Position numbers and translations under genes: made by a program. A stretch of 64,000 nt of DNA, taken from an uncultured Shimia sp. (lineage in GTDB: Bacteria; Pseudomonadota; Alphaproteobacteria; Rhodobacterales; Rhodobacteraceae). Shown in pieces: positions 34,207-55,419 of this stretch. Position 1 is the first letter of the stretch. Each line of letters begins with the position of its first letter. The stretch covers positions 868,001 to 932,000 of the forward strand of contig NZ_CANLRL010000001.1 of the NCBI RefSeq assembly GCF_947493595.1. The letters are read 5' to 3'. Under the pieces are notes generated by a model, which saw only the letters and a program-made list of their open reading frames with translations, was not told the origin of the DNA and did no database searches.

Positions 34207-34892
34207 GTTTGATCGAGCTAAAAAATGTCGCGGCGTTCTACGGCCCTAGTCAGGCGCTGTTTGATGTGTCGTTGAGCGTTGGCGAAGGTGAAGTTCTAGC
34301 CCTGATGGGGCGCAATGGCATGGGCAAGACCACCACTGTAAAAGTCATGTGCCGGATGCTGAAGAACTCAGGTGGTGCCGTCCAGTTTAGCGGACGGGAT
34401 ATTGGCGGTTTGCCGTCTTATAAGGCTGCGCGATTGGGTATTGGGCTTGTGCCCGAAGGGCGCCGGTGTTTTGCAAATCTGTCGGTGTACGAGAACCTGA
34501 TTGCGGCGGCCCGCAAAGGGGCATGGGACTTTGCGGCAGTGTGCCGTTTGTTCCCACGCCTGGAAGAGCGGCGGGATCAGTCCGCTGCTTCGCTGTCTGG
34601 CGGGGAGCAACAGATGTTGGCGATTGGCCGGGCGCTGATGACCAATCCGAAGTTGCTTATTCTGGATGAGGCCACTGAAGGTTTGGCTCCGGTGATCCGT
34701 CAGGAGATTTGGGAGGCGGTTGCCAAGCTCAAAGCCGAAACCGGCATGGCGATTATTGCCATCGACAAATCCCTGAAAGAATTGGGGCAGGTGGCTGACC
34801 GTGCGGTGATCCTTGAGAAAGGGCGCACGGTCTGGGCTGGCGATTTTGACGCTTTGGGGCCGGAAGAAACTGACCGCTACCTTGGCGTCTAA
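34203..34892 (+). CDS. Branched-chain-type ABC ATPase, LivF-like
   Basis: A 229-residue nucleotide-binding protein, second ATPase of this importer. Walker A is GRNGMGKTT, the signature SLSGGEQQMLAIGRAL, Walker B LLILDEATEGLAP. The LVPEGRRCFANLSVYENL segment is typical of LivF. In place of the usual switch histidine, the segment reads IIAIDKSLKELGQV; the position expected to be His (as in VEQ/VEH) is Lys or Asp here, which is unusual. Its 3' end overlaps the convergent CoA-transferase gene by four bases. Confidence 0.87.
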   Translation: MSLIELKNVAAFYGPSQALFDVSLSVGEGEVLALMGRNGMGKTTTVKVMCRMLKNSGGAVQFSGRDIGGLPSYKAARLGIGLVPEGRRCFANLSVYENLIAAARKGAWDFAAVCRLFPRLEERRDQSAASLSGGEQQMLAIGRALMTNPKLLILDEATEGLAPVIRQEIWEAVAKLKAETGMAIIAIDKSLKELGQVADRAVILEKGRTVWAGDFDALGPEETDRYLGV

Positions 34893-36001
34893 GGTTTTGA
34901 TTTTGGCAATACCGGCGCGGTGCGGTCTGTGGACAGGTCCGCGTCGGAAAACACCCAGGGGCCACGCAGTCCGCGCACACCTTCGGCCTCCACCACCATG
35001 CCACGCGCCGCGATTTGAGGATCGGTCAGCGCTTGTTCAATCGAGTTGATTGGTCCAGCGGGAACGGTGGCGGCTTCTAGCGCAGCCAGGAGTTCTGCCG
35101 AAGACCATTTGCTGGTTTCCAATTCAATCTGCTCAGTGAGGGCATCGCGATTGGCGACACGCAATTGGTTGGTTGCATAGTTCCGGGCGTTACCCAAATC
35201 GCCGCGCGACAGCACACCGCAAAGGCGTTGGAACTGACCATCGTTGCCAACGGCGATGATGATGTGACCGTCGGATGTGGGGACCACTTGGTAAGGCGCG
35301 ATGTTGGGGTGCGCATTCCCTTTGCGGTTAGGGCTGTCTCCGGTGGCGAGGTAGTTCATCGCCTGATTGGCCAGCATTGCCGTGGCGCAATCCAACAGGG
35401 ACATGTCGATATGCTGTCCGCGCCCCGTGGTGTGGCGTTGCTCGACGGCTGCGAGAATGCCGATGGTGCCATAGAGACCGGTGACAACATCCGTGACGGC
35501 AACACCGACCTTCTGGGGCTGTCGCTCCGGCTCTCCGGTGATCGACATCAGTCCGGACATGCCTTGCAACAGGAAATCATAGCCAGCGCGGGAGGCATAT
35601 GGGCCAGTTTGGCCAAAGCCAGTGATCGAGCAGTAGATCAGGCGCGGATTGAGTTTGGACAGTGTGTCGTAATCCAAGCCGAATTTCTTCAAACCGCCAA
35701 CTTTGAAGTTCTCAATCAGAATATCGGCGTCTTTGATCAGCTCTAGTACTTGGGCGCGGCCTTTCTCAGTTCGGAAATCCGCGACCACGGAGGTCTTGCC
35801 GCGATTGGCGGCGTAGAAATATGCGGCGGTTTTGTCACCGTCGCGTTCGATAAAGGGCGGACCCCAGGTTCGGGTGTCGTCACCTTGAGGGGCTTCCACC
35901 TTGATGACCTCAGCACCAAGGTCAGCCAAGGATTGGCCAATCCAGGGGCCGGCCAGAATGCGGGCGAGTTCTACAACTTTGAGACCTTTGAGTGGGGTCA
36001 T
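34889..36001 (-). CDS. CaiB/BaiF-type CoA-transferase, probably succinyl-CoA:glutarate
   Basis: A 370-residue family III CoA-transferase. It opens PLKGLKVVELARILAGPWIGQSLADLGAEVIKVE. The catalytic Asp lies in AGYDFLLQGMSGLM. The segment RGKTSVVADFRTEKG is also typical. The family moves CoA between carboxylic acids. Glutaryl-CoA dehydrogenase is encoded less than 1 kb away, so succinyl-CoA-dependent glutarate activation is the most likely role, but other acids remain possible. It is followed on the same strand by nothing and preceded by the XRE-cupin gene nine bases upstream, so those two form an operon. Confidence 0.83.
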   Translation of the reverse strand: MTPLKGLKVVELARILAGPWIGQSLADLGAEVIKVEAPQGDDTRTWGPPFIERDGDKTAAYFYAANRGKTSVVADFRTEKGRAQVLELIKDADILIENFKVGGLKKFGLDYDTLSKLNPRLIYCSITGFGQTGPYASRAGYDFLLQGMSGLMSITGEPERQPQKVGVAVTDVVTGLYGTIGILAAVEQRHTTGRGQHIDMSLLDCATAMLANQAMNYLATGDSPNRKGNAHPNIAPYQVVPTSDGHIIIAVGNDGQFQRLCGVLSRGDLGNARNYATNQLRVANRDALTEQIELETSKWSSAELLAALEAATVPAGPINSIEQALTDPQIAARGMVVEAEGVRGLRGPWVFSDADLSTDRTAPVLPKSKP

Positions 36002-36010
36002 GGGAAGCCT

Positions 36011-36580
36011 TCAGAGATAGGGCGGCGTGCAGGCGGAAACCACCTCGGCCGGAGTGTCAGAGATATTGCGGAAACGGTGGGGCTGGCGACTGTCAAACAG
36101 ATAGCTGTCCCCGGCCCGCAGGATTTGGGTTTGGCTGCCCACGGTCACTTCGATTTCGCCAGAGAGTACAATGCCGCCCTCGTTTGCGGGGTGGGATAGC
36201 ATGGTTTCACCGGTGTCAGCCCCTGGAGCGTAGTGTTCGCGAAGGATCTGCAAGCCGTGGTCTTTGGCATTGCCTACCTGTTTGAGGGTGAGTTTCGAAG
36301 CCTCAGTGCCCAGTTGTGACGTAAGGTCAGAGAGAGCCTCTGGACCAAAAAAAACCTGACCCGGCGCATGGGTTTCCGGTTCAAAAAATTCGGCCATCGA
36401 CATGCCCATGCCGCCCAATATCTTGCGCAAACTGGCCACTGAAGGGCTGGAGCGGTTGGTTTCGATCATGGAGATCTGCCCATGCGGCACGCCAGCGTAT
36501 TGCGCCAGTTGGCGCTGGCTCAATCCCGCAGACAGGCGTAGTTTTTTAAGGCGGTCTCCCACGTCAAACGGATCGCTCAT
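36011..36580 (-). CDS. XRE-family regulator with cupin domain
   Basis: A 189-residue regulator. The helix-turn-helix domain covers about residues 8-65 (RLKKLRLSAGLSQRQLAQYAGVP, then ISMIETNRSSPSVASLRKIL). The cupin covers about residues 115-189 (GGIVLSGEIEVTVGSQTQILRAGDSYLFDSRQPHRFRN). The PuuR-like architecture suggests sensing of a catabolic intermediate. It is divergent from glutaryl-CoA dehydrogenase and cotranscribed with the CoA-transferase, so it probably controls glutarate use. ATG 36580 has GGAGG six bases upstream. Confidence 0.88.
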   Translation of the reverse strand: MSDPFDVGDRLKKLRLSAGLSQRQLAQYAGVPHGQISMIETNRSSPSVASLRKILGGMGMSMAEFFEPETHAPGQVFFGPEALSDLTSQLGTEASKLTLKQVGNAKDHGLQILREHYAPGADTGETMLSHPANEGGIVLSGEIEVTVGSQTQILRAGDSYLFDSRQPHRFRNISDTPAEVVSACTPPYL

Positions 36581-36636
36581 CGGGTCCTCCGTGTTGAGCC
36601 TGTTGATGTGATACACTGTGTCCACAGGACGCAACG

Positions 36637-36699
36637 AAACTTTGATCAATTGGGTCTAGCAATGCTCAATATTCTGCGCAATAGAAGACAAGAAAGTTT
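36637..36699. promoter_or_regulatory. Candidate regulator sites between the XRE-cupin and gcdH genes
   Basis: GAAACTTTG (36636-36644) and AGAAAGTTTTC (from 36692) contain AAACTTT and AAAGTTT, exact inverse words 49 bases apart. TTGACG at 36732-36737 could be a weak -35 element toward gcdH. The 238-bp gap holds nothing else recognisable. Confidence 0.25.
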
Positions 36700-36818
36700 T
36701 CGCGACGTAGCGGCGTTTGATGCGGGTTGCCTTGACGTTGAAGCAGGGTCGGACATTTTAGGCGGCAACGGAAATTGATGTTTTGCGCCTCTATGTGAGG
36801 CGGACGGAAGGAGAGACC

Positions 36819-38033
36819 ATGGCCAAGGATCTGGCACCACAGTCCAAACCGGAATTGGGTTCGTTCAACTGGGAAGACCCGTTTCTGATCGAAAGCCAGC
36901 TGGAAGAAGATGAGCGTATGATCCGGGATGCCGCACGCGCTTATTGTGAGGAAAAGCTGGCGCCACGTGTAACCGCGGCGTTTGAGCAGGAAGAGACCGA
37001 TCCGGCGATTTTTGCCGAGATGGGCGAGATGGGGCTGTTGGGCACCACCATCCCAGAAGAATACGGCGGTATTGGTGCTGGCTACGTGACCTACGGTCTG
37101 GTGGCGCGCGAAGTGGAGCGTGTGGACAGCGGCTATCGTTCGATGATGTCGGTGCAGAGCTCTCTGGTGATGTATCCTATCTACGCTTATGGCTCTGAAG
37201 AACAGCGCAAAAAATACCTGCCCAAGCTGGCGTCTGGTGAATGGATTGGCTGCTTTGGTCTGACCGAACCGGATGCCGGTTCTGATCCGGGCAGCATGAA
37301 GACCACCGCTAAGAAAGTGGACGGCGGTTATGTGCTGAACGGTGCAAAAATGTGGATTTCCAACTCGCCAATCGCAGATGTGTTTGTGGTTTGGGCCAAG
37401 TCGGACGCGCATGGCGGCAAGATCCGTGGCTTTGTATTGGAAAAAGGAACCAAGGGGCTGTCAGCGCCAAAAATTGCGCACAAGGCTTCGCTCCGGGCGT
37501 CGATCACCGGTGAGATTGTACTCGACAATGTGGAGGTGTCTGAAGACGCACTGCTGCCAAATGTGGAAGGGTTGAAAGGTCCGTTTGGCTGTCTGAACCG
37601 TGCGCGCTATGGCATTGCATGGGGTGCGATGGGAGCTGCGGAATACTGTTGGCACGCGGCACGTCAGTACGGTCTCGATCGTAAGCAATTTGGCAAGCCA
37701 CTGGCGCAAACGCAGTTGTTCCAGCTGAAGCTGGCCAACATGCAGACCGAGATTTCACTGGGTCTTCAGGCGGCGCTGCGGGTTGGCCGTTTGATGGATG
37801 AGGCGAAGGCCGCTCCAGAGATGGTGTCGATCATCAAGCGCAACAACTGTGGCAAGGCGCTGGATATTGCCCGACTGTCGCGCGACATGCACGGCGGTAA
37901 CGGCATCAGCCTGGAGTTTGGTGTAATCCGTCACATGGTGAACCTGGAAACGGTGAACACCTATGAAGGCACACATGACGTTCACGCGCTGATCCTAGGG
38001 CGTGCCCAGACAGGGCTGCAGGCGTTTTTCTGA
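36819..38033 (+). CDS. gcdH: Glutaryl-CoA dehydrogenase
   Basis: A 404-residue acyl-CoA dehydrogenase with the features of GcdH. It has the N-terminal [37 protein letters not shown] in the FAD-binding middle domain, [22 protein letters not shown], and [16 protein letters not shown] with the catalytic glutamate. It oxidises and decarboxylates glutaryl-CoA to crotonyl-CoA, passing electrons to ETF. ATG 36819 ([14 protein letters not shown]) follows GGAAGGAGAG. The divergent XRE-cupin and CoA-transferase genes complete a glutarate activation and oxidation pair. Confidence 0.94.
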
Positions 38034-38063
38034 TATTTGTCAGGCTGTAATATTGTGAAATTG

Positions 38064-38098
38064 AAGCGCGTCACTTGGCTGTGGTGCGCTTTTCTTTT
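38064..38098 (+). terminator. Rho-independent terminator of gcdH, overlapping the hyuB 3' end
   Basis: The stem AAGCGC / GCGCTT has inner CAC/GTG pairs and is followed by TTCTTTTCT. The structure lies partly inside the last codons of the convergent hydantoinase B gene. Confidence 0.65.
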
Positions 38099-39825
38099 CT
38101 GAGTACGATTGTTGCAGCGCTGTCCACCTCGAAGGATGAAGCGATTGCCACGCCAAACAGGGTCTTTGCCTGTTGCGGCGAGTACCGTTCCAGGCGAACG
38201 TCTTCGACAACCAGTTGAGGGTCGCGCTCCAGCGGGTCGCCATAACCGCCTCCGCCGGGGGTTTGCACGCGGACCCGGTCGCCGACTTTTAGCAAAATAT
38301 CCTGTTCTTTTGACAAGTGTTCGGGCGTGTATGGCGCGCCGTCGCGATACACGGCGACCTTGTTGACCTCTCCATCACTGCCGTCGCGCGCGCCTTGCGG
38401 GCCAAAGCGTCCGTGGTCCATGACAAAGCTGGCCTTGGCCTCACCGCGACGCAATTCGACCTCATAGTCTAGACCAAATCCACCACGATGTACGCCTGCG
38501 CCACCGGATCCTTTGTGTAAGGCGTAGTGGCGGTAAAGCACGGGGTAAGCCTGTTCCATGATTTCGATTGGCGGGGCTTTGGAGATGCCGATGGTTGAGC
38601 AGCCGTTTGACAGACCGTCGTGCCGTGCGTTGCCGCCGTAACCGCCGCCTGAAATTTGATACATAACGTAGTTGCGATTGCGCTCGGGATCAAAACCACC
38701 AAGAGCAAAGTTACCGCTGGTCCCCGCAGGCGCGGCCGTGACTTTTTCTGGGATGGCTTGCACGAGCGCAGCAAAAACAGCTTCGGCGATACGTTGCGAG
38801 ACCTCCGCCGCGCAGCCAGAAACCGGACGCGGATATTTGGCATCCAGAAACGTGTCTTCGATACCTATGATGTTAAAAGGCGCAAAGGCTCCGGCATTCA
38901 TAGGCACGTCCGGGAAAATGTGTCTCATGGCGAGGTAGACTGCGCTGTGCGTTGTGGCTCTCACTGAGTTCATGGGACCAAGGCACGGCGGGCTGCTGTC
39001 CTTAAAGTCGAAGGTCAGCCCTTCATTAGATTTGGTGACAGAGAGCGCGATTGTGAGAGGTGCGTTGACCACACCATCGCTGTCGATAAATGCCGTGGAA
39101 GTGTAGGTGCCTTTGGGGATGTTCTGAAGCCTGCTGCGCATTTGGTCATCCGCACGCTGATTCAGCTGGTCTATGGCATCTGAAACTGTAGAATCGCCAT
39201 ATCGGTCAAGCAATGCGGTCAGGCGGGTTTCGCCAACGCGTAGGGCGCCAGCTTGGGCTTGCACATCTCCGATACGCTGGTCGGCAATCCGGATGTTGGA
39301 CTGGATGATTGCAAAAATCTCTTTGTCCATTACACCTTGCTTGAAGAGCTTGACGGGCGGTAAGCGCAGGCCTTCCTGTTCCACCGCCGTTGCGGAGGCA
39401 GAAAAACCGCCCGGCACAGCCCCACCGGTGTCCGGCCAATGGCCGGTATTGGACAGCCAGCAGAAGATTTCTCCATCCCGGTAGAACGGTTTCGCAAAGC
39501 GCACATCCATCAAATGCGTACCGCCAAGATAGGGGTCATTGACGACATAAATGTCGCCTGGAACCGGGGCTGCCACGTCACCAGCGGAGATCATCTCAAT
39601 CAGAACGCGTGTGGAGTGCTGCATTGTACCGACAAACACGGGCAAGCCCGCGGCCCCCTGGGCAATCAAAGCGCCATCGGTGGCGGCGTAAATCCCATCA
39701 GAGCGATCATTGGCCTCAGCGATGACCGGAGAAAAGGCAGCTCGCGAAAAGGCGAGGTCCATTTCATCGCAAACTTGCTGCAAACCAGCTTGAATGACGG
39801 TGAGTGTGACAGGGTCCAGCGTCAT
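38071..39825 (-). CDS. Hydantoinase B / oxoprolinase subunit B
   Basis: A 584-residue protein of the hydantoinase B (HyuB) family. It opens DPVTLTVIQAGLQQVCDEMDLAFSRAAFSPVIAEANDRS and has the conserved VNDPYLGGTHLMDVRF, SNTGHWPDTGGAVPGGF, GYGGNARHDGLSNG and the C-terminal VQTPGGGGYGDPLERD. Together with HyuA it forms an ATP-dependent cyclic amide hydrolase of the 5-oxoprolinase / N-methylhydantoinase / acetone carboxylase relatives. Substrate is unknown. Its ATG overlaps the hyuA stop by four bases. Confidence 0.92.
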   Translation of the reverse strand: MTLDPVTLTVIQAGLQQVCDEMDLAFSRAAFSPVIAEANDRSDGIYAATDGALIAQGAAGLPVFVGTMQHSTRVLIEMISAGDVAAPVPGDIYVVNDPYLGGTHLMDVRFAKPFYRDGEIFCWLSNTGHWPDTGGAVPGGFSASATAVEQEGLRLPPVKLFKQGVMDKEIFAIIQSNIRIADQRIGDVQAQAGALRVGETRLTALLDRYGDSTVSDAIDQLNQRADDQMRSRLQNIPKGTYTSTAFIDSDGVVNAPLTIALSVTKSNEGLTFDFKDSSPPCLGPMNSVRATTHSAVYLAMRHIFPDVPMNAGAFAPFNIIGIEDTFLDAKYPRPVSGCAAEVSQRIAEAVFAALVQAIPEKVTAAPAGTSGNFALGGFDPERNRNYVMYQISGGGYGGNARHDGLSNGCSTIGISKAPPIEIMEQAYPVLYRHYALHKGSGGAGVHRGGFGLDYEVELRRGEAKASFVMDHGRFGPQGARDGSDGEVNKVAVYRDGAPYTPEHLSKEQDILLKVGDRVRVQTPGGGGYGDPLERDPQLVVEDVRLERYSPQQAKTLFGVAIASSFEVDSAATIVLRKEKRTTAK

Positions 39826-41885: not shown

Positions 41886-41899
41886 CTACGCTCCTCCAA

Positions 41900-41921
41900 G
41901 CAAATTTATTTGCATGCAAAT
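41900..41921. promoter_or_regulatory. Overlapping palindromes upstream of hyuA, probable operator
   Basis: GCAAAT-TT-ATTTGC (41900-41913) overlaps the perfect 14-bp palindrome ATTTGCATGCAAAT (41908-41921). Both lie 15-36 bp before the hyuA start codon. The TTGCATGCAA core resembles sites of GntR-family regulators. No GntR gene is in the window, so the regulator is unidentified. Confidence 0.55.
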
Positions 41922-41945: not shown

Positions 41946-42731
41946 TCAATCGCTGAGAATTCGAATCGAAGCCGTTACCGGTTTGTCGCCGATTACGTAG
42001 GCGCGATGGTCGTTGGTCGACAATGTGACACGAATCTCGTGCTGACCGGGAGGTAAGTGCCCAATTCTTGTTGTCGAGCTATAGAGCCTGCCGAGTTTCA
42101 AACCGTTGAGATAGATGTGGCCGTGGCCAGTGCCCGGAACGTGAGGCCCATCCACAAGGTTTGGTGTGAATTCGAAGTCGTCGGAGAGAACGCCAATCTT
42201 CCAGCCGCCTTCGGTTTCTTCAGCGGAGATCGCAATGCGTGGCGCCGGCTCTCCGTCGCCGACCTGGCAAATGTCACCGATGCCAAAGAGACCCAGATCT
42301 GCCGCTTTCCCGGAAACTTTGGGGGCTACCAGACGGGCGCGTGTCGTGACCGTGCCAGCCTTTTCAAACATCAATGAAATAGGGAAAGTCCGCCCGTCTT
42401 TCAAGTCTCCATCAATGCCATCCAGAGTCAGAAAAACCCCGTCTGCGGCCAGAGAGGCACGGGACTCCGAAGGCAGAGCGAGCGGCCCATGATTTTCGCT
42501 GAACCTCGCATCTTGCGCGTCTGTGGCACTGGCAGACATCAGTTGGTCAGGTGGCCCGACATTCTCCATCGTGACAAATACGGCGAGCTGATTCGGCTGT
42601 GACGCGAGCGGTGCCGCGGTCGCGTTGGACAACAAAATTTGGGCCTCAGGTTTTGGTTTCAAAGCAACCCAACCGAGCCCGGCGATCAAGCCAAACAGGG
42701 CCAGAATCCCCACGATCTTTCGCACTTTCAT
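41946..42731 (-). CDS. Membrane-anchored protein with degenerate PCu(A)C-like domain
   Basis: A 261-residue protein with an N-terminal transmembrane anchor or signal (residues 5-24, IVGILALFGLIAGLGWVAL). Residues 30-110 resemble the copper chaperone PCu(A)C fold (VFVTMENVGPPDQLMSASATDA, then ASLAADGVFLTLDGI). The Met/His ligands expected in the last strand are replaced (GVFLTLDGI, where GYHLMLMGL-like sequence is usual). The C-terminal 80 residues carry GTGHGHIYLNGLKLGRLYSS and PGQHEIRVTLSTNDH, a domain seen in other uncharacterised secreted proteins. Function unknown. It is divergent from the membrane protein at 42760 and lies downstream of no obvious promoter of its own. Confidence 0.55.
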   Translation of the reverse strand: MKVRKIVGILALFGLIAGLGWVALKPKPEAQILLSNATAAPLASQPNQLAVFVTMENVGPPDQLMSASATDAQDARFSENHGPLALPSESRASLAADGVFLTLDGIDGDLKDGRTFPISLMFEKAGTVTTRARLVAPKVSGKAADLGLFGIGDICQVGDGEPAPRIAISAEETEGGWKIGVLSDDFEFTPNLVDGPHVPGTGHGHIYLNGLKLGRLYSSTTRIGHLPPGQHEIRVTLSTNDHRAYVIGDKPVTASIRILSD

Positions 42732-42759: not shown

Positions 42760-44193
42760 ATGATCGTCACGATGTCCCACTCAGCAACCACTTTCAAGCG
42801 CCGGTGCCTTGCTTTTGGACCCACGTTTGCTGGTGTTATAATGGTTTCCGACCCCGCTCAGGCCCATACCTCTGAGGGCGGTTTCGTGCTGCTCTTGCCG
42901 ACAGATTTCTACATCGCCTCGGGTGTTTTTGCGGTGGCATTGACGGTAGCTTTTATGGCGTTTTTGCCAAGCAGCGCCGCGGTGCGGATTTTCACCCCCC
43001 TAAGGCTTTGGCGCAGTCGACCGAACGGGCTGCCCAGGGCGACAAGCCTTGTGTCCGCTGCGGTCCTGATGTGGCTGGTTTATGTAGGGTTAAACGGGTC
43101 CCGAGATCCATTGGCCAATCCATTGCCCCTGACAATCTGGACCGTTTGGTGGGTTGGGCTTGTATTTGTGCAGGGTTTTGTCGTGGACCTTTGGCGTTGG
43201 ATAAATCCGTGGACTGGGCCGGTTTGGGTTTTGCAGTCCCTGATGGGGCGTCAGTCACAGTTTCGGTTATCTCCGAAAATTGGTCACAGCCTTGGCGTGG
43301 TGTCCTTTTTAGGGTTTGTCGCCTTTTTGCTTGCGGACATTGCGCCTTCTGATCCTGCGCGTTTGGCTCGGGCTGTGGCCGCGTATTGGCTGTTGCATCT
43401 GATTGGCAATCTGCTCTTTGGCCATCGTTGGGCCTTGAGGGCCGAGGGCATAGGGATGGTGATGCAGCTTTATGCGCGTTTGGCGCCGTTTGGCCGATCT
43501 GCGCAGGGCCGCGCTTTTGGCTTTTGGGGCTGGCAAACTGTCCGACGCCGCGTAGTGTCGCCGGGGTTGGCGCTGTTGTGCCTTTTGGTACTGGGCAGCG
43601 GTAGTTTTGATGGCGTGAACGAAACCTTTTGGTGGTTGGCACAGCTTGGCTTGAACCCGCTGGAGTTTCCCGGTCGCTCAGCCGTTATCTGGCAGACACT
43701 GGTCGGGTTGATGGCAAGTAACGTGCTGCTGGTTGCGATCTTTGCAGCGACACTTTGGTTGGGGCTGAGGCTCGGGCGGGTCACACACGTAAGCCTTGCA
43801 ACTGCGTTTTGCCTGTTTGCGCCCACGGTTTTGCCAATCGCGCTCGGGTATCATTTTGCCCACTACTTCACGAGCTTTTTGGTTGAGGCGCAATACGTAC
43901 GGATCGCATTGACCGATCCTTGGTCACGCGGGCAGGATTTTCTTGGCTTGGGTCAGATCTATGTGACGACCGGATTCTTTAACACGCAGGACAGCGTTCG
44001 CGTGCTTTGGTTGTGCCAGGCAGGCGGGGTTGTGATTGGTCATATTGTGGCGGTTTTGCTTGCGCACGCGGTGGCTGTCCGGCACTTCGGATCCGCGCGC
44101 ACAGCGTTACTGTCTCAGGTGCCTCTCGCTATCTTTATGATTTGCTACACCTTTTTTGGCCTATGGCTGCTTGCATCACCGCGCGGCTTCTGA
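42760..44193 (+). CDS. Polytopic membrane protein of unknown function
   Basis: A 477-residue protein with a signal-like N-terminus ending QAHTSEGG and about ten hydrophobic helices. It is rich in Trp and has a FVVDLWRWINPWTGPVW segment and a late GYHFAHYFTSFLVEAQYV. Its size, the AH-x-x-G start of the mature part and the helix pattern recall a family of bacterial membrane proteins often labelled fenitrothion hydrolase, but this is from memory and weak. The start could be ATG 42760 or 42772. It precedes the second liv-type transporter operon by about 100 bp and may be cotranscribed. Confidence 0.55.
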   Translation: MIVTMSHSATTFKRRCLAFGPTFAGVIMVSDPAQAHTSEGGFVLLLPTDFYIASGVFAVALTVAFMAFLPSSAAVRIFTPLRLWRSRPNGLPRATSLVSAAVLMWLVYVGLNGSRDPLANPLPLTIWTVWWVGLVFVQGFVVDLWRWINPWTGPVWVLQSLMGRQSQFRLSPKIGHSLGVVSFLGFVAFLLADIAPSDPARLARAVAAYWLLHLIGNLLFGHRWALRAEGIGMVMQLYARLAPFGRSAQGRAFGFWGWQTVRRRVVSPGLALLCLLVLGSGSFDGVNETFWWLAQLGLNPLEFPGRSAVIWQTLVGLMASNVLLVAIFAATLWLGLRLGRVTHVSLATAFCLFAPTVLPIALGYHFAHYFTSFLVEAQYVRIALTDPWSRGQDFLGLGQIYVTTGFFNTQDSVRVLWLCQAGGVVIGHIVAVLLAHAVAVRHFGSARTALLSQVPLAIFMICYTFFGLWLLASPRGF

Positions 44194-44300
44194 CACAACA
44201 CGCGCCCTCTAGACAGAACCGTCATTCATTCGCACTCTAACAGCTGTGAAGAGTAACGGAATTTTCGGTCACAGACCATGTGAACACAGGGGGTAAAGTG

Positions 44301-45605
44301 ATGACCAAATCCAAGGCCGTACCAGTAACAGGCACGCAGCCGACACGCCGTGATGCGCTCAAGACTTTGGCGCTTGGCGGTGGGGCCGCAGCTGCCATGC
44401 CTCTTTGGGCGCGATATGCAGGCGCACAAACGTCCGAGCCAATCAAAGTGGGTTTTCAAGTGCACCGGACCGGCATCGGCGCGGCCTATGGGCGGTGGTA
44501 TGATCGCACAACTTCCGCAGCGGCGGCTCTGATCAACGAGCAAGGCGGCATCAATGGACGTCCGCTGAAGATTGTGGCCGAAGACGATGGAACTGACCCC
44601 AAACGTGGGGCTGAAGTGGTGGAAAAATTTGCCACGCAGCACAATTGTGACATTGGGTTTGGCACTCTGTTCTCTCATGTTGTGATCGGCTCCGCGCCGC
44701 GTGCTGGAGAATTAAAGCTGCCGTATTTTGTGGTGTCCGAAGGCCACCACGTGGCGAGCGGGATGCTGAATCGCTACACGTTGCAGCCGGGCATTACGGA
44801 CGTGAAGAGCCAGGTACAGGCAATGGCGCCGTTTGTCGCGGACAATCTAGGTAAAAAAGTCACGATGATCTTCCCGGATTTTGCGTTTGGGCATGACCAC
44901 CGAGATTACTTCACTGCAGCGATTGAGGCGCAAGGCGGTGAGGTTCTGGAGCACATTGCGATCCCGCCAACTGAAACGTCCTTCACAAAGTATTTCCCAA
45001 AAATCCCGCGCGACACAGAGGTGATTTACCACGTCATGGTCGGACCCGCTGTGCTGACCTTTGTGAAGGAACTGGGCGAGTTCTTTGGACCGCAACGTCC
45101 TGAGATGTTTGGCTTCATCGACAGCTTGGAAGCGGTGGACATTGGCAGCCCGGGACTTGAGTTCCTTGATGGGACCTACTTCTGGGAGGGCAATCCGCGC
45201 TATGCGCAAGAAGATCAGTCGGAGTATGACGCGTTTTTCCGGGAACGGGTTGGGGTGGATGCCAACGGTGCCTCGGTGAGTGATCCAAAAGACGTGTCGA
45301 CCTATGCGCACATGTTTGGATGCTGGGAGACTTTGCACGTTGTGAAAGCCGGGATGGAGAGCGCCGGATATCGCGGGCCGCAGGACCGTGCTGCATTGAT
45401 AGAGGCGGTGGAAGCGATGACCGACATGCCGCATTCCAATGCGCATCCGCAGGGGGCGAAAATCTTCAACGGCAAAACCCACCAGGTGTTTGGCCATCAG
45501 TACATCACCAAGGTGGTGGATGGAAAACTGCTCTTGGTGCACACCACGTCGATTGAAGACACGTTCTATCCTGACGAGGCGGATTATACCACGCAGGCGC
45601 TTTGA
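44301..45605 (+). CDS. ABC transporter substrate-binding protein, urea/amide-like, Tat-exported
   Basis: A 434-residue binding protein with a twin-arginine signal (PTRRDALKTLALGGGAAAAMPLWARYAGAQ). The mature part starts SEPIKVGFQVHRTGIGAAYGRWY and belongs to the Peripla_BP_6 group that includes urea and short-chain amide binders. Tat export suggests folding in the cytosol before secretion. ATG 44301 is used; a GTG at 44298 is adjacent. It heads the operon 44301-48932 and probably brings in the substrate of the hydantoinase and hydroxylase genes that flank it. Confidence 0.85.
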   Translation: MTKSKAVPVTGTQPTRRDALKTLALGGGAAAAMPLWARYAGAQTSEPIKVGFQVHRTGIGAAYGRWYDRTTSAAAALINEQGGINGRPLKIVAEDDGTDPKRGAEVVEKFATQHNCDIGFGTLFSHVVIGSAPRAGELKLPYFVVSEGHHVASGMLNRYTLQPGITDVKSQVQAMAPFVADNLGKKVTMIFPDFAFGHDHRDYFTAAIEAQGGEVLEHIAIPPTETSFTKYFPKIPRDTEVIYHVMVGPAVLTFVKELGEFFGPQRPEMFGFIDSLEAVDIGSPGLEFLDGTYFWEGNPRYAQEDQSEYDAFFRERVGVDANGASVSDPKDVSTYAHMFGCWETLHVVKAGMESAGYRGPQDRAALIEAVEAMTDMPHSNAHPQGAKIFNGKTHQVFGHQYITKVVDGKLLLVHTTSIEDTFYPDEADYTTQAL

Positions 45606-45660: not shown

Positions 45661-46587
45661 ATGGATTTCGGACCTTATTTGATGCTCGCGACCTTGGAGG
45701 GCGCGGTCACGGCGGCGGTCTTGGCATTGACTGCTTCTGGCTTGGCGCTGGTGTTTGGTGTCATGCGGGTGGTGAATGTCGCGCATGGCGAGTTTTTTAT
45801 GCTAGGTGCAGTTTTGGCCTGGTGGGTGACTAATATGTTGGGTGGTTCAGCGGCTTTTGGTTTTGCTGTTGCGCTGATTGTTGTGCCTGTTTTGGTGGGG
45901 TTCTTGGCCGTCGTGACGGACATGACCGTCCTGAAACGGATCAACTATGATCCAGAACGTACCATCGTTGCGACAATCGGTATTTTGTATATTTTTCAGC
46001 AGGTTACATTGATGACCTACGGCCCGGATGCGCGACCTGTGGTGCCGCCGTTTAACACGCGTTTGGCCCTGCCATGGATTGAGTTTGTTGATGGGGAGAT
46101 CAGTCTGTATTGGCCCTGGGGGTTGTCCATCACTAGCTACAAACTTGCGGTGATCGGCGCGGCTGCTTTGGTGTTGGTTGGTCTTTGGGTTTTGATGACA
46201 CGGTCCAAACTGGGGCTATTGATGCGGGCCACCGAACAGGATCGCGATATGGCTTTGGCCTTCGGTATCCCAGTGGAACGGGTTTACGCTTTGGTATTTG
46301 GCCTGGGGGCAGCCATGGCAGCGCTGGCAGCGGTTTTGATCGTGCCAATCCAGCAAGCGCATTATCTCATGGGGCATGATCCGCTTTTGCTGAGTTTCAT
46401 TGTGGTCATCATCGGCGGATTGGGAAGTTTTCCTGGCACGATCTTGGCGGCATTGCTTATCGGTCTATCTGACGGAGTTATTTCGGTTTTCTTTTCTCCA
46501 ACACTTGCAAAAATTCTAGCAACACTTCTGGTGGCGCTTGTTTTGGTGTTCCGGCCTCAGGGTCTGTTTGGAGCGCGTGACACATGA
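45661..46587 (+). CDS. Branched-chain-type ABC permease, LivH-like
   Basis: A 308-residue inner-membrane permease. It has the family segments ASGLALVFGVMRVVNVAHGEFFMLGAVLAWWV and VVIIGGLGSFPGTILAALLIGLSDG, and ends FRPQGLFGARDT, all typical of LivH. Partner of the LivM-like gene that starts inside its stop codon (ATGA overlap). Confidence 0.9.
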   Translation: MDFGPYLMLATLEGAVTAAVLALTASGLALVFGVMRVVNVAHGEFFMLGAVLAWWVTNMLGGSAAFGFAVALIVVPVLVGFLAVVTDMTVLKRINYDPERTIVATIGILYIFQQVTLMTYGPDARPVVPPFNTRLALPWIEFVDGEISLYWPWGLSITSYKLAVIGAAALVLVGLWVLMTRSKLGLLMRATEQDRDMALAFGIPVERVYALVFGLGAAMAALAAVLIVPIQQAHYLMGHDPLLLSFIVVIIGGLGSFPGTILAALLIGLSDGVISVFFSPTLAKILATLLVALVLVFRPQGLFGARDT

Positions 46588-48932: not shown

Positions 48933-48946
48933 AGCCGTGAAAATCA

Positions 48947-48990
48947 CGTCGGTATTGCGTCTGTATCCCGACTGTATTGTGGAGGTGCAA
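48947..48990 (+). repeat. Dispersed 44-nt repeat, copy B
   Basis: Same element as 4240-4283, differing at four positions. In this copy GTCGG and CCGAC can pair across 15 bases. It lies between the convergent livF-like and MarR-family genes, with no other feature in that 80-bp gap. Confidence 0.7.
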
Positions 48991-49012
48991 AAATCTCGTT
49001 GAATCCGAGTGA

Positions 49013-49462
49013 TCAGGTGAGTTTTTGCAACAGCAAAAGGAAGATCGTTTGTTCTGCTTCGTTCAAGGGCGCAAGCGTGTCTCGGGTGATTTGATGGGCT
49101 GCGGGCGCAACAGCTTCGAAAAGATCCCATCCTTGCGCGGTTGGTTTGAGTAAGATGCGGCGTTGGTCTGTCGGATCCGGGGAACTGGCCACGAGGTCTT
49201 TGGCGCGCAGGCGGTCGACCACACCTTTGATCGTGGCGCCGTCCATGGCGGTGGCGCGGCCCAAGGCGTTTTGCGACACTGCGCCAAGTTCGCAGAGTTT
49301 GGCAAGCGCGGCAAATTGGGTGGGGGTTAAATCAGAGATGGCATCCGCGAAAATGGACAAATGTCGTTGGTTGGCGCGGCGCATCAAGAAACCAACCTGG
49401 TCGTCCAACGCATAAGCATCTGCGGCCGCTGATGGGGTGAGTTTTGGGGTTTCAGAGGTCAT
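49013..49462 (-). CDS. MarR-family transcriptional regulator
   Basis: A 149-residue winged-helix regulator. It contains VGFLMRRANQRHLSIF, LTPTQFAALAKLCELGAVSQNALGRATAMDGATIKGVVDRLRAKDLV and the wing PDPTDQRRILLKPT, all typical of MarR regulators of aromatic or N-heterocycle catabolism. It is divergent from the hydroxylase operon at 49585 and probably represses it, releasing on binding the substrate. Start ATG 49462 (MTSETPKL) is preferred; an in-frame upstream start reaching 49546 would enter the candidate operator. Confidence 0.9.
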   Translation of the reverse strand: MTSETPKLTPSAAADAYALDDQVGFLMRRANQRHLSIFADAISDLTPTQFAALAKLCELGAVSQNALGRATAMDGATIKGVVDRLRAKDLVASSPDPTDQRRILLKPTAQGWDLFEAVAPAAHQITRDTLAPLNEAEQTIFLLLLQKLT

Positions 49463-49543
49463 CTCAGGAAGCCTTGTTGCGGGCGCCAATGTGCGATTTG
49501 TTGACAGACGTGTAAAAGCTGCCGCAAAATCCATTGGTATACA

Positions 49544-49557
49544 CACAAGTTTTTGTG
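49544..49557. promoter_or_regulatory. Inverted repeat, candidate MarR operator
   Basis: CACAA-GTTT-TTGTG has perfect 5-bp arms, 28 bp before the hydroxylase FAD-subunit start and 82 bp before the MarR start. Position and symmetry fit an autoregulatory MarR site. Confidence 0.4.
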
Positions 49558-49584
49558 CGCGCCCTGACGATTTGAGAGGTCACC

Positions 49585-50427
49585 ATGGGGATTTATCATC
49601 GCCCCGGCAAGTTGAAAGATGCGCTCGCTGTATTGGCGACAACCGGCGCGCAGCCAGTGGCTGGGTGTACGGATGTTTTTGCTAGCACCGGCGCGCAGGA
49701 ATTGCCGGGCGACGTATTGGACGTTACGGCAATTGATGAGCTGCGCGGGATCACGAAAACTGGCCTAGGGTGGCGCATCGGCGCCACGACAACCTGGCGC
49801 GATGTTGTTTGTACCAAGCTGCCCCCGGCGTTTTGCATGCTCCAACAAGCCGCGCGTGAGATAGGCGGTCTGCAAGTTCAAAACGCGGGCACGGTGGCTG
49901 GTAACCTCTGCAATGCGTCGCCAGCGGCAGACGGGATGCCCCCGTTGTTGGCGCTCAACGCTCAGGTCGAATTGGCATCGGAGCAGGGGATCCGGATTAT
50001 CGACCTGGCTGACTTTGTGTCTGGGCCGAGAGCCACAGTGAGGCGCGACAATGAACTGCTAAGCGCGGTTTTGGTGCCTGACGCGAGTGTGTTGGGCTGC
50101 AGCCGATTCCTAAAGTTGGGCGCACGCAAACATTTAGTGATTTCCATTGCCATGGTTGCGGTGCGCCTTGACGTGCAAGACGAGATCATTCGGGACGTGG
50201 CGGTGGCCATTGGTGCCTGTGGGCCGGTCGCAATACGTGCATCCAAATTGGAACGCGCTTTGGTTGGAACTCGTGTCGATCAGGCTGACCAATTGGTCAG
50301 TGTGGCGCATTTGGAAGATGCCCTGTCACCCATCTCGGATGTACGGGGCGAAGCAGGCTACCGCAGTGTTGCGGCTTTGGAGCTTGTTCAGCGTGGGATC
50401 GTTGATGTGTTGGAGGCGTATCGATGA
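49585..50427 (+). CDS. Xanthine-dehydrogenase-family FAD-binding subunit
   Basis: A 280-residue medium subunit of a molybdenum hydroxylase (CoxM/XdhB-like). FAD-binding stretches are PVAGCTDVFAS and NAGTVAGNLCNASPAADGMPPLLAL. The C-terminal CO_deh_flav_C domain has FLKLGARKHLVISIAMVAVRL. It takes electrons from the Fe-S clusters of the partner subunit encoded next, with a four-base overlap. Substrate specificity rests on the large subunit. Confidence 0.92.
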   Translation: MGIYHRPGKLKDALAVLATTGAQPVAGCTDVFASTGAQELPGDVLDVTAIDELRGITKTGLGWRIGATTTWRDVVCTKLPPAFCMLQQAAREIGGLQVQNAGTVAGNLCNASPAADGMPPLLALNAQVELASEQGIRIIDLADFVSGPRATVRRDNELLSAVLVPDASVLGCSRFLKLGARKHLVISIAMVAVRLDVQDEIIRDVAVAIGACGPVAIRASKLERALVGTRVDQADQLVSVAHLEDALSPISDVRGEAGYRSVAALELVQRGIVDVLEAYR

Positions 50428-53135: not shown

Positions 53136-54586
53136 GCCGTGCACCGAGACAACGCGAGGAAAAAATCCGATGTGACGCTTGTCCGGTGATGTGTTTTATT
53201 GCGGAGGGGCGTATTGGCGCTTGCGACCGGTATGCCAATATCAACGGAGAGATTGTCCGCTGCGACCCTCTGACGATCTTGGATCGGGCGATCGAGGCTG
53301 GGACCGAAGTACGTCCGTTTTTAGGGCGCGATTGGCATGACGGATTGTCCACGGATGATCTGTTTGTCACCGCTGTTGGGGCCGGCACAACCTATCCTGA
53401 TTTTAAGCCCGCGCCATTCCTGGTGAGCCGGGAGATTGAGGGTGTTGATTTTGTCACGGTCGTGACCGAGGCCATTTTTTCCTACTGCGGCGTGAAGGTG
53501 AAGATCGACACGGATCGGCACCTGGGGGCGGAAGGCGCCGTTGTACGCGCGCAGGGTGAGGCCGTGGGGCTGATGGTGACCAGCGAATATGGCAGTCAGA
53601 TGATGAGCCTGGGCGGTGTGGATCACCTGACCGGTGGTAGCAAATCCGAAGGTCGTGTGACCTGCGACGTGTTGTTACAACTCTTGAACCGCGCGCCGGT
53701 GGTTTTAGACGTTGAGGGCGGAGCCGAAGTTGTGGTGCAGGCTGGCGCAGCACCGATTGTAGACGGTCAGAAAGAGACGCGAATGCGCGTCGGATGCGGG
53801 TCGGCCACCATCGGAATGTTTGCTAGCCAATGGAAGGGCTTGGTCGACGAAGTTGTTGTCGTCGATGATCACATCACTGGTGTGGTGAGCGAACATCAGG
53901 CCGGAAAAGTGATTGATTGGCCAGACAGTGGCATACGCATCAAAGGGCGACGCAGTACGCCCGGCCGTTACTTTCAGGTGGCAAAGCCAGGGCTTGGTTG
54001 GGGGGGCACCGATATTGAGGACCCTTTGAGTATCCTTGGTCCCTGGCGGCCGGAAAAAGGCGCGCGGGAAGGTTTGTCGCTTTTGATGGTGAGCACAACG
54101 GGGGAACACGCCGCATTTTATGAGCTCGATGCCGATCTGGTTCCGCAGAAACGCCCTCTGCCGGCAACATTGGAGCCGTCGGTGGCTTTGATTGCGGAAA
54201 ACTGTGAGCCTGCGCTTTGCACCGTTATGTTCATGGGCGGCGCCGGTGGGTCGCTGCGGTCCGGCGTGACCCAAAACCCGGTGAAGCTGACACAGGCAGT
54301 ACAGGCGAATGAAGCCAAGGTGACGGTTGGCGGCGCGCCGGCCTATGTTTGGCCGGGCGGTGGGATCACGCTCATGGCGGATGTGACCAAAATGCCAGAT
54401 GGGGCGTTTGGTATGGTGCCTACGCCGGCGGTGGTGGCCCCATTGGAGTTCACCGTGCCTATGGAGAGGTATCAGGAATTGGGCGGGCACGTGGATCAGG
54501 TCCGAAAACTTCCCCAGATTTTAAACGAAGGTGGCGCGTATGTCCGCAGCACGCATGTGGTGCCCACCAACCTTAAGAAGCCATGA
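53132..54586 (+). CDS. 6-hydroxynicotinate reductase-like protein
   Basis: A 484-residue protein that I recognise as the family annotated 6-hydroxynicotinate reductase (Hnr). The N-terminus carries a cysteine cluster, IRCDACPVMCFIAEGRIGACDRY, likely to bind an Fe-S cluster. Other marked segments are VTEAIFSYCGVKVKIDTDRHLGAEG, GGVDHLTGGSKSEGR and MRVGCGSATIGMFASQW. In Eubacterium barkeri Hnr is a ferredoxin-dependent flavin/Fe-S enzyme that reduces 6-hydroxynicotinate to 1,4,5,6-tetrahydro-6-oxonicotinate. Gene order here (hydroxylase, then this, then UPF0280) supports a reductive N-heterocycle pathway. Start overlaps the hydroxylase stop by four bases. Exact substrate is unproven. Confidence 0.75.
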   Translation: MSRAPRQREEKIRCDACPVMCFIAEGRIGACDRYANINGEIVRCDPLTILDRAIEAGTEVRPFLGRDWHDGLSTDDLFVTAVGAGTTYPDFKPAPFLVSREIEGVDFVTVVTEAIFSYCGVKVKIDTDRHLGAEGAVVRAQGEAVGLMVTSEYGSQMMSLGGVDHLTGGSKSEGRVTCDVLLQLLNRAPVVLDVEGGAEVVVQAGAAPIVDGQKETRMRVGCGSATIGMFASQWKGLVDEVVVVDDHITGVVSEHQAGKVIDWPDSGIRIKGRRSTPGRYFQVAKPGLGWGGTDIEDPLSILGPWRPEKGAREGLSLLMVSTTGEHAAFYELDADLVPQKRPLPATLEPSVALIAENCEPALCTVMFMGGAGGSLRSGVTQNPVKLTQAVQANEAKVTVGGAPAYVWPGGGITLMADVTKMPDGAFGMVPTPAVVAPLEFTVPMERYQELGGHVDQVRKLPQILNEGGAYVRSTHVVPTNLKKP

Positions 54587-55419
54587 AAAGTGGTGCGCAA
54601 ATCAGTTGGTTACCAGACGGTAAGCGTTTGCATATGCACCATGGCCCCATTGATTTAATTGTCGAAATTTGGGGTTCGGGAAAGGCGCAGGCGTATCAAC
54701 GAGCGGCGTTTCGGTTTCAGTCAATCCTAGAGGAATTGGTTGAAGAGCTTCCCGAATTGCGACGGCCTGCAGTGGTGCAGGCGAGGTTTAAGGGGGCGAT
54801 TGCCGCGGCCATGCAGAACGCCGTCGTGCGACATTTGCCGGAGTTTGTGACGCCAATGGCGGCAGTGGCGGGGGCTGTGGCAGATGAAATCGCAAGCGTC
54901 ATCGCTGAAACTCCCAAAGTGCAGAAGGCCTATGTGAACAACGGCGGTGACATCGCGCTGGTTCTGGGGACTTATGAGACATTGACCGCTGATGTGGGGG
55001 GCGGGGTCGGGCGCGCCACGCTGCATGGTGCCAGCGAGATCAGAGGCATCGCAACGTCTGGCTGGCGCGGGCGCAGCCTTTCATTTGGCATTGCAGACGC
55101 GGTGACTGTTTTGGCCAGTTCCGCAGCCCTAGCCGACGTGGCCGCCACATTGGTAGGTAATGCGGTGGATCTACCGGACGATGGCTCGATTACGCGGGCG
55201 CCAGCCGAGAGCCAAAATTTAGACAGCGATCTAGGCCACAGGTCGGTGACGGTTGCGGTGCCCAGTTTGTCGGATGCCGATGTGGCCACAGCTTTGGGAC
55301 GTGGAAGAGATTTTGCGGAAGGTCTTGGCGCAGCGCACGGGGTTTGGGGCGGCATGCTTACGCTTCAAGGGCAGGTGATCACGTTTGGGGAACTCAGTCT
55401 CAGCAATACCATCAAGTGA
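54583..55419 (+). CDS. UPF0280 family protein, ApbE-like
   Basis: A 278-residue protein of the UPF0280 family, related in fold to ApbE flavin transferases. It has KAYVNNGGDIALVLG, GIATSGWRGRSLSFGIADAVTVLASSAALADVAATLVGNAV, where ApbE proteins carry their metal and FAD site. ApbE enzymes attach FMN covalently to target proteins. Placement directly after the reductase-like gene (ATGA overlap) suggests it matures that flavoprotein, but this is inferred. Last gene of the operon; no clear terminator follows. Confidence 0.8.
   Translation: MKSGAQISWLPDGKRLHMHHGPIDLIVEIWGSGKAQAYQRAAFRFQSILEELVEELPELRRPAVVQARFKGAIAAAMQNAVVRHLPEFVTPMAAVAGAVADEIASVIAETPKVQKAYVNNGGDIALVLGTYETLTADVGGGVGRATLHGASEIRGIATSGWRGRSLSFGIADAVTVLASSAALADVAATLVGNAVDLPDDGSITRAPAESQNLDSDLGHRSVTVAVPSLSDADVATALGRGRDFAEGLGAAHGVWGGMLTLQGQVITFGELSLSNTIK

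What the first reader, a model, noticed from the sequence alone, without database searches (positions are those of the whole stretch)
34889..55419. A likely catabolic island for nicotinate or a related N-heterocycle, ending in glutarate oxidation
Seen: within 20 kb lie a CaiB-type CoA-transferase, glutaryl-CoA dehydrogenase, hydantoinase/oxoprolinase A and B, a Tat-exported ABC importer, a molybdenum hydroxylase, a 6-hydroxynicotinate-reductase-like protein and a UPF0280 protein, with two local regulators. Known: in Azorhizobium nicotinate is hydroxylated to 6-hydroxynicotinate, reduced to tetrahydro-6-oxonicotinate, opened hydrolytically, decarboxylated and oxidised to glutarate, then made into glutaryl-CoA with succinyl-CoA and decarboxylated to crotonyl-CoA. 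Inference: the window encodes the first, second, ring-opening and final steps of such a route. Missing here are the decarboxylase and semialdehyde dehydrogenase. The heterocycle may be something other than nicotinate.
Basis: partly seen in the sequence, partly recalled or inferred. Interest (0 to 1): 0.85.

Follow-up and report, generated by a model that had tools for sequence, protein, structure and literature searches.

The report
Nicotinate degradation cluster, alternative ring opener
A marine bacterium carries a gene cluster that probably lets it eat nicotinate (vitamin B3) by an already described route, but with an ATP-driven lactam-opening enzyme where many relatives use a different hydrolase, and with a protein of unsolved function that, in the related genomes searched, was never found without the pathway's reductase.

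Summary
The genes are there as described. The 20 kb is a nicotinate cluster of the kind published for Azorhizobium and Bradyrhizobium (PMC3511419), joined to a glutarate block. New here:
(1) Of 68 family genomes with hnr (6-hydroxynicotinate reductase), 37 have the hyuA ortholog and 29 an enamidase-like amidohydrolase, none both; 1 of 81 hnr-less genomes has either. The label changes about six times on the Hnr tree. HyuAB keeps caprolactamase's ATP and metal residues, so it most likely opens the 6-oxo ring.
(2) Nicotinamidase lies in the cluster in 34 of 80 related loci, 23 of them Mesorhizobium: this points to nicotinate.
(3) UPF0280 is in 67 of 68 hnr genomes and 0 of 81 others. It has the ApbE fold but no counterpart of ApbE's invariant histidine and no conserved cysteine.
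(4) Glutaryl-CoA dehydrogenase is in 143 of 149 genomes whatever their hnr state; it sits beside the cluster in 7 of 8 other hnr genomes of this genus, rarely elsewhere.
Decarboxylase and semialdehyde dehydrogenase remain unidentified. Known pathway, new enzyme variant, sharp test for UPF0280.

The parts
34889..36001 (-). CaiB/type III CoA-transferase, probable succinyl-CoA:glutarate CoA-transferase (glutarate block)
   Evidence: PF02515 426 bits; NF052585 529 bits under cut-off 750; human SUGCT 292 bits
36011..36649 (-). HTH + cupin regulator of the glutarate block
   Evidence: PF01381 and PF07883; beside caiB/gcdH in 4 genus relatives L297, L298, L299, L302
36783..38033 (+). Glutaryl-CoA dehydrogenase GcdH
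   Evidence: PDB GCDH chains up to 651 bits against 237 for acyl-CoA oxidase 4 and less for others; 143 of 149 family genomes
38071..39825 (-). HyuB, metal subunit of an ATP-dependent lactamase; proposed ring opener
   Evidence: PF02538 519 bits; aligned with CapB 6yra_B, metal ligands D40, H104, D107, H129 kept (ligands from PMC8453981)
39822..41885 (-). HyuA, ATPase subunit of the same lactamase
   Evidence: PF05378/PF01968; CapA D11 and D295 correspond to D16 and D288; ortholog in 37 of 68 hnr+ and 1 of 81 hnr- genomes
41946..42731 (-). PCuAC-like protein, recurring cluster member of unknown role
   Evidence: PF04314 29.4 bits, exactly at its cut-off; beside MemP in relatives
42760..44193 (+). 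MemP: multi-TM protein without family, directly upstream of the importer's binding-protein gene
   Evidence: no Pfam or NCBIfam match; 9 hydrophobic segments; H365, H368 and H428 conserved at 93% or more in 30 sequences
44280..45605 (+). Substrate-binding protein of the importer (probable nicotinate uptake)
   Evidence: PF13458 161 bits; same position in relatives
45661..46587 (+). ABC permease, LivH type
   Evidence: PF02653
46584..47531 (+). ABC permease, LivM type
   Evidence: PF02653
47519..48250 (+). ABC ATPase, LivG type
   Evidence: PF00005 + PF12399
48171..48932 (+). ABC ATPase, LivF type (true start probably downstream of 48171)
   Evidence: PF00005
49013..49546 (-). MarR-family regulator, divergent from the hydroxylase genes
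   Evidence: PF01047/PF12802; a MarR gene in 32 of 59 fetched family hnr regions
49585..50427 (+). FAD subunit of the molybdenum hydroxylase (probable nicotinate dehydrogenase)
   Evidence: PF00941 + PF03450
50424..53135 (+). Fused [2Fe-2S]/molybdopterin subunit of the hydroxylase
   Evidence: PF01799, PF02738, PF20256; E. barkeri nicotinate dehydrogenase chains 3hrd A 258 bits and B 212 bits over 162-901; best single chain an aldehyde oxidoreductase, 383 bits
53132..54586 (+). Hnr, 6-hydroxynicotinate reductase
   Evidence: 60-70% identical to plasmid homologues, 17 of 26 annotated so; cysteines 14, 17, 21, 31, 119, 178, 222, 358 in 34 of 34 aligned sequences
54583..55419 (+). UPF0280/COG2122, proposed Hnr partner or maturation factor
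   Evidence: NF003322 over cut-off; 67 of 68 hnr+, 0 of 81 hnr- genomes; ApbE fold

Best explanation
A nicotinate (and, with the genome's nicotinamidase, nicotinamide) catabolic cluster. The Liv-type ABC importer brings in nicotinate; the molybdenum hydroxylase makes 6-hydroxynicotinate; Hnr, with its N-terminal four-cysteine (probably [4Fe-4S]) segment, reduces it to 1,4,5,6-tetrahydro-6-oxonicotinate, helped by UPF0280; the HyuAB pair, working like caprolactamase (ATP activation in HyuA, metal-assisted opening in HyuB), opens this lactam in place of the enamidase-like amidohydrolase of relatives; the product is turned into glutarate by enzymes not identified here; CaiB and GcdH turn glutarate into crotonyl-CoA. 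Shown: gene content, orthology, co-occurrence, exclusivity, conserved catalytic residues. Inferred: substrate, every reaction, direction of flow, UPF0280's role.
For: The same core (hydroxylase, hnr, ABC importer, two conserved unknowns) is published as the nicotinate cluster of Azorhizobium, Bradyrhizobium and strain SG-6C, which metabolises 6-chloronicotinate through the nicotinate route (abstract and passages of PMC3511419; there too the genes were assigned by BLAST, not by mutants). Nicotinamidase (NF008623 over cut-off in both representatives scanned) lies in the cluster in 34 of 80 loci and 3 of 20 further ones; the own genome has one, unlinked. HyuA and Ena: 37 and 29 of 68 hnr+ genomes, overlap 0; 1 and 0 of 81 hnr- genomes; 6 changes on the Hnr tree, at least 3 forced by starred branches. 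CapA/CapB catalytic residues conserved. The related oxoprolinase OplAB hydrolyses the six-membered delta-valerolactam with ATP (PMC11033972, passages). GcdH identity strong.
Against: No chemistry was tested. HyuA/HyuB score well under the caprolactamase cut-offs (484 and 327 bits against 1000), so the substrate cannot be read off. HyuAB lies 11-15 kb from hnr here and on another contig or far away in several genomes. GcdH is a core gene (143 of 149). No decarboxylase or semialdehyde dehydrogenase was found in the cluster. PF06684 (DUF1185), which follows UPF0280 in most relatives, is absent from this genome. No nicotinamidase was seen in the fetched hnr regions of the 149-genome family sample.
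Confidence: 0.76

Rival explanations
1. Nicotinate pathway as above, but HyuAB serves another step or lactam (for example 5-oxoproline or a carboxylation) and an unlinked hydrolase opens the ring.
For: HyuAB families have many substrates; HyuA is unlinked from hnr in several genomes; the own genome has three further HyuA-like matches.
Against: HyuA orthologs at 58% identity or more are nearly confined to hnr+ genomes (37 of 68; 1 of 81 hnr-) and never occur with Ena, with repeated exchange on the tree. The own genome has no Ena match at E 0.001.
Confidence: 0.12
2. The cluster degrades another N-heterocyclic carboxylate, nicotinate genes having been re-used.
For: Mo-hydroxylase specificity cannot be read from sequence; the best single chain in the PDB is an aldehyde oxidoreductase (383 bits).
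Against: Nicotinamidase in 34 of 80 related loci; Hnr 59-70% identical to homologues in other genera and families whose clusters are built alike; degradation through the nicotinate route reported for SG-6C, whose cluster is of this kind.
Confidence: 0.1
3. The glutarate block is a neighbour serving lysine or general glutarate catabolism and is not a dedicated part of the nicotinate unit.
For: GcdH in 66 of 68 hnr+ and 77 of 81 hnr- genomes, no association; gcdH within 25 kb of hnr in only 3 of 68 (by eye); gcdH in 2 and caiB in 3 of 59 other fetched hnr regions.
Against: gcdH next to hyuB in 7 of 8 other hnr+ genus genomes (caiB seen in 6; the seventh contig begins at gcdH), in at least two chromosomal settings; expectation about 0.27 per single-copy gene in the 59 regions, P 0.03 for gcdH and 0.003 for caiB (relatedness ignored, single copy of caiB assumed; these +-10 kb regions would have missed the window's own 15 kb arrangement).
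Confidence: 0.3
4. UPF0280 is a sulfur relay acting through a persulfide, as proposed for COG2122 in Methanosarcina, here supplying Fe-S assembly of Hnr.
For: COG2122 is required with DUF39 and a NIL/ferredoxin protein for homocysteine synthesis in Desulfovibrio (PMC5764234, passages read); called a sulfur trafficking protein in PMC12068725 (passages).
Against: No cysteine column is conserved in 32 sequences (at most 6 of 32), and the window copy has none.
Confidence: 0.12

Closest known systems
Nicotinate cluster of Azorhizobium caulinodans, Bradyrhizobium and strain SG-6C (PMC3511419, abstract and passages read)
   Same: [quoted passage not shown] route through the reduced lactam to glutarate
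   Different: Here HyuAB and no enamidase-like hydrolase; XDH-like fused hydroxylase; no DUF1185; caiB-gcdH linked. I did not fetch those named clusters; among nine unnamed alphaproteobacterial loci of one other family (f8) NicAB-type hydroxylase genes are in 9 and the enamidase-like gene in 6
Eubacterium barkeri nicotinate fermentation cluster (its paper is not held; recalled and via PMC3511419)
   Same: Nicotinate dehydrogenase, 6-hydroxynicotinate reductase (the SG-6C homologue is reported 42% identical)
   Different: Recalled: enamidase and a fermentative lower pathway; here HyuAB and glutaryl-CoA oxidation
Caprolactamase CapAB of Pseudomonas jessenii (PMC8453981, passages) and oxoprolinase OplAB (PMC11033972, passages)
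   Same: Two-subunit ATP-dependent lactamase; CapA D11/D295 and CapB D41/H99/D102/H124 counterparts present
   Different: Scores far below the caprolactamase equivalog cut-offs; different proposed substrate
COG2122/UPF0280 of Desulfovibrio and methanogens (MA1715)
   Same: Same wider family; 2o34 is the best fold match (Z 21.1); in both settings beside a ferredoxin-linked enzyme (for Hnr recalled)
   Different: DUF39 (PF01837) found in 0 of 299 Pseudomonadota searched; no conserved cysteine here; consistent partner is hnr
ApbE/Ftp/FmnB FMN transferases
   Same: Fold (Z 13.7-16.2); GGD, ATSG and D-x3-T segments aligned
   Different: ApbE's invariant histidine (SHIxDP loop) has no counterpart in the alignment

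Membership tests
Nicotinate-to-glutarate pathway, Azorhizobium/Bradyrhizobium kind | Molybdenum hydroxylase beside hnr | tested here: met
   NdhMo in 57 of 59 fetched family hnr regions; its substrate is not tested
Nicotinate-to-glutarate pathway, Azorhizobium/Bradyrhizobium kind | 6-hydroxynicotinate reductase | tested here: met
   60-70% identity to 26 homologues, 17 annotated so; E. barkeri Hnr itself was not compared
Nicotinate-to-glutarate pathway, Azorhizobium/Bradyrhizobium kind | Enamidase-like amidohydrolase for ring opening | tested here: not met
   no match in own genome; HyuAB present instead. The claim is therefore 'variant', not plain member
Nicotinate-to-glutarate pathway, Azorhizobium/Bradyrhizobium kind | Decarboxylase and glutarate-semialdehyde dehydrogenase | not tested
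   none among the genes scanned in 34.9-55.4 kb; rest of genome not searched for them
Nicotinate-to-glutarate pathway, Azorhizobium/Bradyrhizobium kind | Growth on nicotinate | not testable with these tools
   needs culture
ATP-dependent lactamase (caprolactamase/oxoprolinase) | ATP-site aspartates and Asp-His-Asp-His metal site | tested here: met
   D16, D288; D40, H104, D107, H129
Caprolactamase proper | NCBIfam equivalog cut-off | tested here: not met
   484 and 327 bits against 1000
FMN transferase (ApbE) | ApbE fold | tested here: met
   AlphaFold2 pLDDT 95.3; 19 ApbE/Ftp/FmnB entries at Z 13.7-16.2, next other fold 7.8
FMN transferase (ApbE) | Metal-binding D-x3-T segment | tested here: met
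   D185/T189 aligned with ApbE D256/T260, hhalign probability 88.7, E 2.6e-6, 103 columns; that these bind the metal is recalled
FMN transferase (ApbE) | Invariant histidine of the SHIxDP loop | tested here: not met
   His228 invariant in 27 of 27 ApbE rows, opposite a gap in UPF0280; its catalytic role is recalled
DUF39/COG1900 relationship of Hnr | Profile similarity | tested here: inconclusive
   a DUF39 sequence recalled from memory scored no better than 48 of 150 unrelated proteins; no real DUF39 sequence was obtained
Succinyl-CoA:glutarate CoA-transferase | NCBIfam equivalog cut-off | tested here: not met
   529 bits against 750; still its best model

The most novel reading that the evidence does not exclude
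UPF0280/COG2122 is a dedicated activator of Hnr, and more generally a cytosolic factor of ApbE fold, without the FMN-transferase histidine and without a sulfur-carrying cysteine, needed by ferredoxin-linked iron-sulfur enzymes of otherwise unrelated pathways (Hnr in aerobes, DUF39 homocysteine synthesis in anaerobes). Together with it, nicotinate degraders repeatedly exchange an ATP-free for an ATP-driven ring opener.
Probability: 0.38. Interest if true: 0.7.

Novelty: new variant of a known kind. Interest (0 to 1): 0.52.

Why it matters
It gives HyuAB, a large family usually annotated only as hydantoinase/oxoprolinase, a specific and testable substrate, offers an answer to how the reduced nicotinate ring is opened in the many relatives without the enamidase-like gene (37 of 68 hnr genomes here), and turns the open question of what COG2122/UPF0280 does into a simple experiment in aerobic, tractable bacteria where its consistent partner is hnr. 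Speculation: the 'amino acid synthesis' label of DUF1185, drawn partly from Liv-type ABC neighbours (PMC2954203, passages), may in part reflect nicotinate-type clusters; but 31 of 81 hnr-less genomes have DUF1185 too.

Tried and rejected
Chance co-location of the hydroxylase/hnr/UPF0280/hyuAB genes: rejected by conservation and co-occurrence.

UPF0280 as plain FMN transferase: fold and D-x3-T kept but the ApbE histidine loop missing. UPF0280 as persulfide carrier: no conserved cysteine.

Hnr as a distant DUF39 protein: an impression by eye of similar motifs did not survive the control (48 of 150 unrelated proteins and 45 of 150 shuffles scored as high); a single recalled sequence is a weak probe. 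PF01837 was found in 0 of 299 Pseudomonadota, so no real sequence came from there; nor from plasmids, the PDB or viral contigs. Hnr fold: AlphaFold2 model pLDDT 74.5; no convincing PDB match (Foldseek best E 0.08; VIA best Z 4.1), which shows nothing either way for a model of this quality.

DUF1185 as an obligatory pathway enzyme: 61 of 68 hnr+ genomes have it, but also 31 of 81 hnr- ones; no match in this genome, G110, G113 and G143, nor in G132 and G008 (hnr at a contig end) and G014 (hnr decayed).

Semialdehyde dehydrogenase: ALDH genes in 14 of 166 loci, at varied places and 29-43% identical to the chosen query apart from the query itself; no consistent candidate.

Literature: no paper in the held library has both 'hydantoinase' and '6-hydroxynicotin'; UPF0280 is in none of the 30 papers listed of 32. 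Subscription papers are not held, so this is not proof of absence.
Full report
WHAT IS THERE. Two more belong to the cluster: a PCuAC-like protein (41946-42731) and a multi-TM protein without a family (42760-44193). The glutarate block (caiB, HTH-cupin regulator, gcdH; 34889-38033) abuts hyuB-hyuA (38071-41885, opposite strand to gcdH), then importer, MarR, hydroxylase, hnr, UPF0280. To the right lie ksgA and pdxA and a gene I call lptD from recall.

THE CORE IS A KNOWN CLUSTER. [quoted passage not shown] The assignment there was by BLAST to the E. barkeri cluster. The window's Hnr is 60-70% identical to 26 plasmid-borne homologues, 17 annotated 6-hydroxynicotinate reductase, and at most 78% identical to those of other genera in the family sample. 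hnr was found in 68 of 149 family genomes (one per genus code; counted in are the decayed copy of G014 and partial ones such as G008), 9 of 25 genus genomes and 32 of 398 genomes of the phylum.

WHY NICOTINATE. In 34 of the 80 loci kept from named genomes (the best 80 of 592 relatives) a nicotinamidase lies 1-5 kb from hnr: 23 Mesorhizobium, and others including L048, L050, L066, L072, L074. The two representatives scanned pass the curated nicotinamidase cut-off (212 bits against 174); the rest rest on BLAST. Three of the 20 loci also have it. The window's own genome has one, on another contig. No nicotinamidase was seen in the fetched hnr regions of the family sample. The Mo subunit matches E. 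barkeri nicotinate dehydrogenase chains (258 and 212 bits over its two halves); the best single chain, however, is an aldehyde oxidoreductase with 383 bits, so this point is supportive only.

THE RING OPENER. In the same 149 genomes, hyuA orthologs (58% identity or more; the next matches drop to 46%; two are cut by contig ends) occur in 37 of 68 hnr+ genomes and in one of 81 others (G022, 85% complete, one stop inside). Orthologs of the amidohydrolase found beside hnr in Sulfitobacter (71% or more; next 49% and 43%; G029 is a fragment) occur in 29 of 68 and 0 of 81. No genome has both; of the two with neither, G014 has a decayed hnr and G109 an amidohydrolase of 49% (Fisher P for exclusivity within hnr+ 3e-17, relatedness ignored). 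The cut-offs were set after seeing these gaps. On a quick tree of 64 Hnr proteins (SH-aLRT support only) the label needs 6 changes, at least 3 across starred branches, so one has replaced the other repeatedly. HyuB keeps caprolactamase's four metal ligands and HyuA its two ATP-site aspartates. OplAB, a relative, hydrolyses the six-membered delta-valerolactam with ATP (PMC11033972, passages). I conclude that HyuAB most likely opens 1,4,5,6-tetrahydro-6-oxonicotinate. The hydroxylase (XDH-like or NicAB) and the importer (two kinds) are exchanged as well; hnr and UPF0280 stay together.

UPF0280. It occurs in 67 of 68 hnr+ genomes and 0 of 81 hnr- genomes, 63 of them over the curated cut-off; the remainder are fragments at contig ends or the decayed G014. 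It follows hnr on the same strand within 300 bases in 65 of 67. The hnr+ genome without it, G008, has a partial hnr at a contig end. Its AlphaFold2 model (pLDDT 95.3) matches the COG2122 structure 2o34 (Z 21.1) and 19 ApbE/Ftp/FmnB entries (Z 13.7-16.2), with other folds at 7.8 or less. Profile alignment with 27 ApbE proteins pairs GGD, ATSG and D-x3-T, but ApbE's invariant His228 falls opposite a gap. No cysteine is conserved. COG2122 is required, with DUF39 and a NIL/ferredoxin protein, for homocysteine synthesis in Desulfovibrio (PMC5764234, passages), where it is noted as distantly related to ApbE without its flavin-binding region; its biochemical role is unsettled. DUF39 was found in 0 of 299 Pseudomonadota searched, so here UPF0280 probably serves something else; Hnr is the obvious candidate. 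Hnr has eight cysteines invariant in 34 of 34 sequences, four in an N-terminal C-x2-C-x3-C-x9-C segment. That E. barkeri Hnr is a ferredoxin-dependent Fe-S flavoprotein is recalled, not checked.

GLUTARATE BLOCK. GcdH is secure; CaiB's best model is succinate-glutarate CoA-transferase but under its cut-off. gcdH occurs in 66 of 68 hnr+ and 77 of 81 hnr- genomes. It lies on the same contig within 25 kb of hnr in 3 of 68 (G000, G079, G125; by eye; contig ends may hide some). In 59 other fetched hnr regions of mostly 20 kb, gcdH is present in 2 and a caiB of 55% or more in 3, against 0.27 expected each if single-copy; these regions would have missed an arrangement like the window's. One named locus, L080, also has gcdH. 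Within the genus, 7 of 8 other hnr+ genomes have gcdH next to hyuB: five of these sit beside ksgA with no DUF1185 seen behind UPF0280, two elsewhere with DUF1185. So the two blocks travel together in this genus, and loosely elsewhere, while GcdH itself is a general enzyme.

GAPS. No decarboxylase or glutarate-semialdehyde dehydrogenase was assigned. Substrate, product and regulation are inferred. Gene naming in the neighbourhood scripts rests on BLAST to a hand-chosen query set; ORF choice in those scripts missed some UPF0280 copies (48 of 59), so the counts for UPF0280 and DUF1185 are taken from the profile searches.

VERDICT. A known catabolic pathway in a variant form, with an enzyme swap that has strong comparative support and a partner protein whose function is open and testable.

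Noticed in passing
42760-44193 and 41946-42731: A multi-TM protein without any family and a divergent PCuAC-like protein recur at the importer end of the cluster; the membrane protein keeps three histidines (H365, H368, H428; 30 sequences), the other four (H203, H205, H231, H242; 12 sequences). Possibly a metal or electron-transfer pair; unexplained.
   Followed up: partly
L310, L311, L312 against L305-L309 and the window: DUF1185 follows UPF0280 in the three genus genomes where no ksgA was seen within about 8 kb, and is not seen behind it in the five (and the window) where ksgA is next; the rest of the cluster stays, so DUF1185 seems dispensable or replaced.
   Followed up: partly
30206-34892: A second Liv-type ABC operon overlaps the 3' end of caiB by 4 bases; its binding protein is also next to caiB or hyuB in genus relatives L302 and L304. 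A glutarate-related importer is possible.
   Followed up: no
L091:5534-6256 and 33 other loci of L043-L122: Nicotinamidase genes lie inside or beside the nicotinate cluster of Mesorhizobium and others, suggesting direct use of nicotinamide.
   Followed up: yes
G014:C28 (L173): hnr (five stops) and UPF0280 (three stops) are both broken in a 98% complete genome: a decaying nicotinate cluster.
   Followed up: no
L033-L038 and the other plasmid records: hnr lies on 26 plasmid records, 12 of them Sulfitobacter, the others mostly roseobacters and rhizobia, so the pathway can be plasmid-borne.
   Followed up: no
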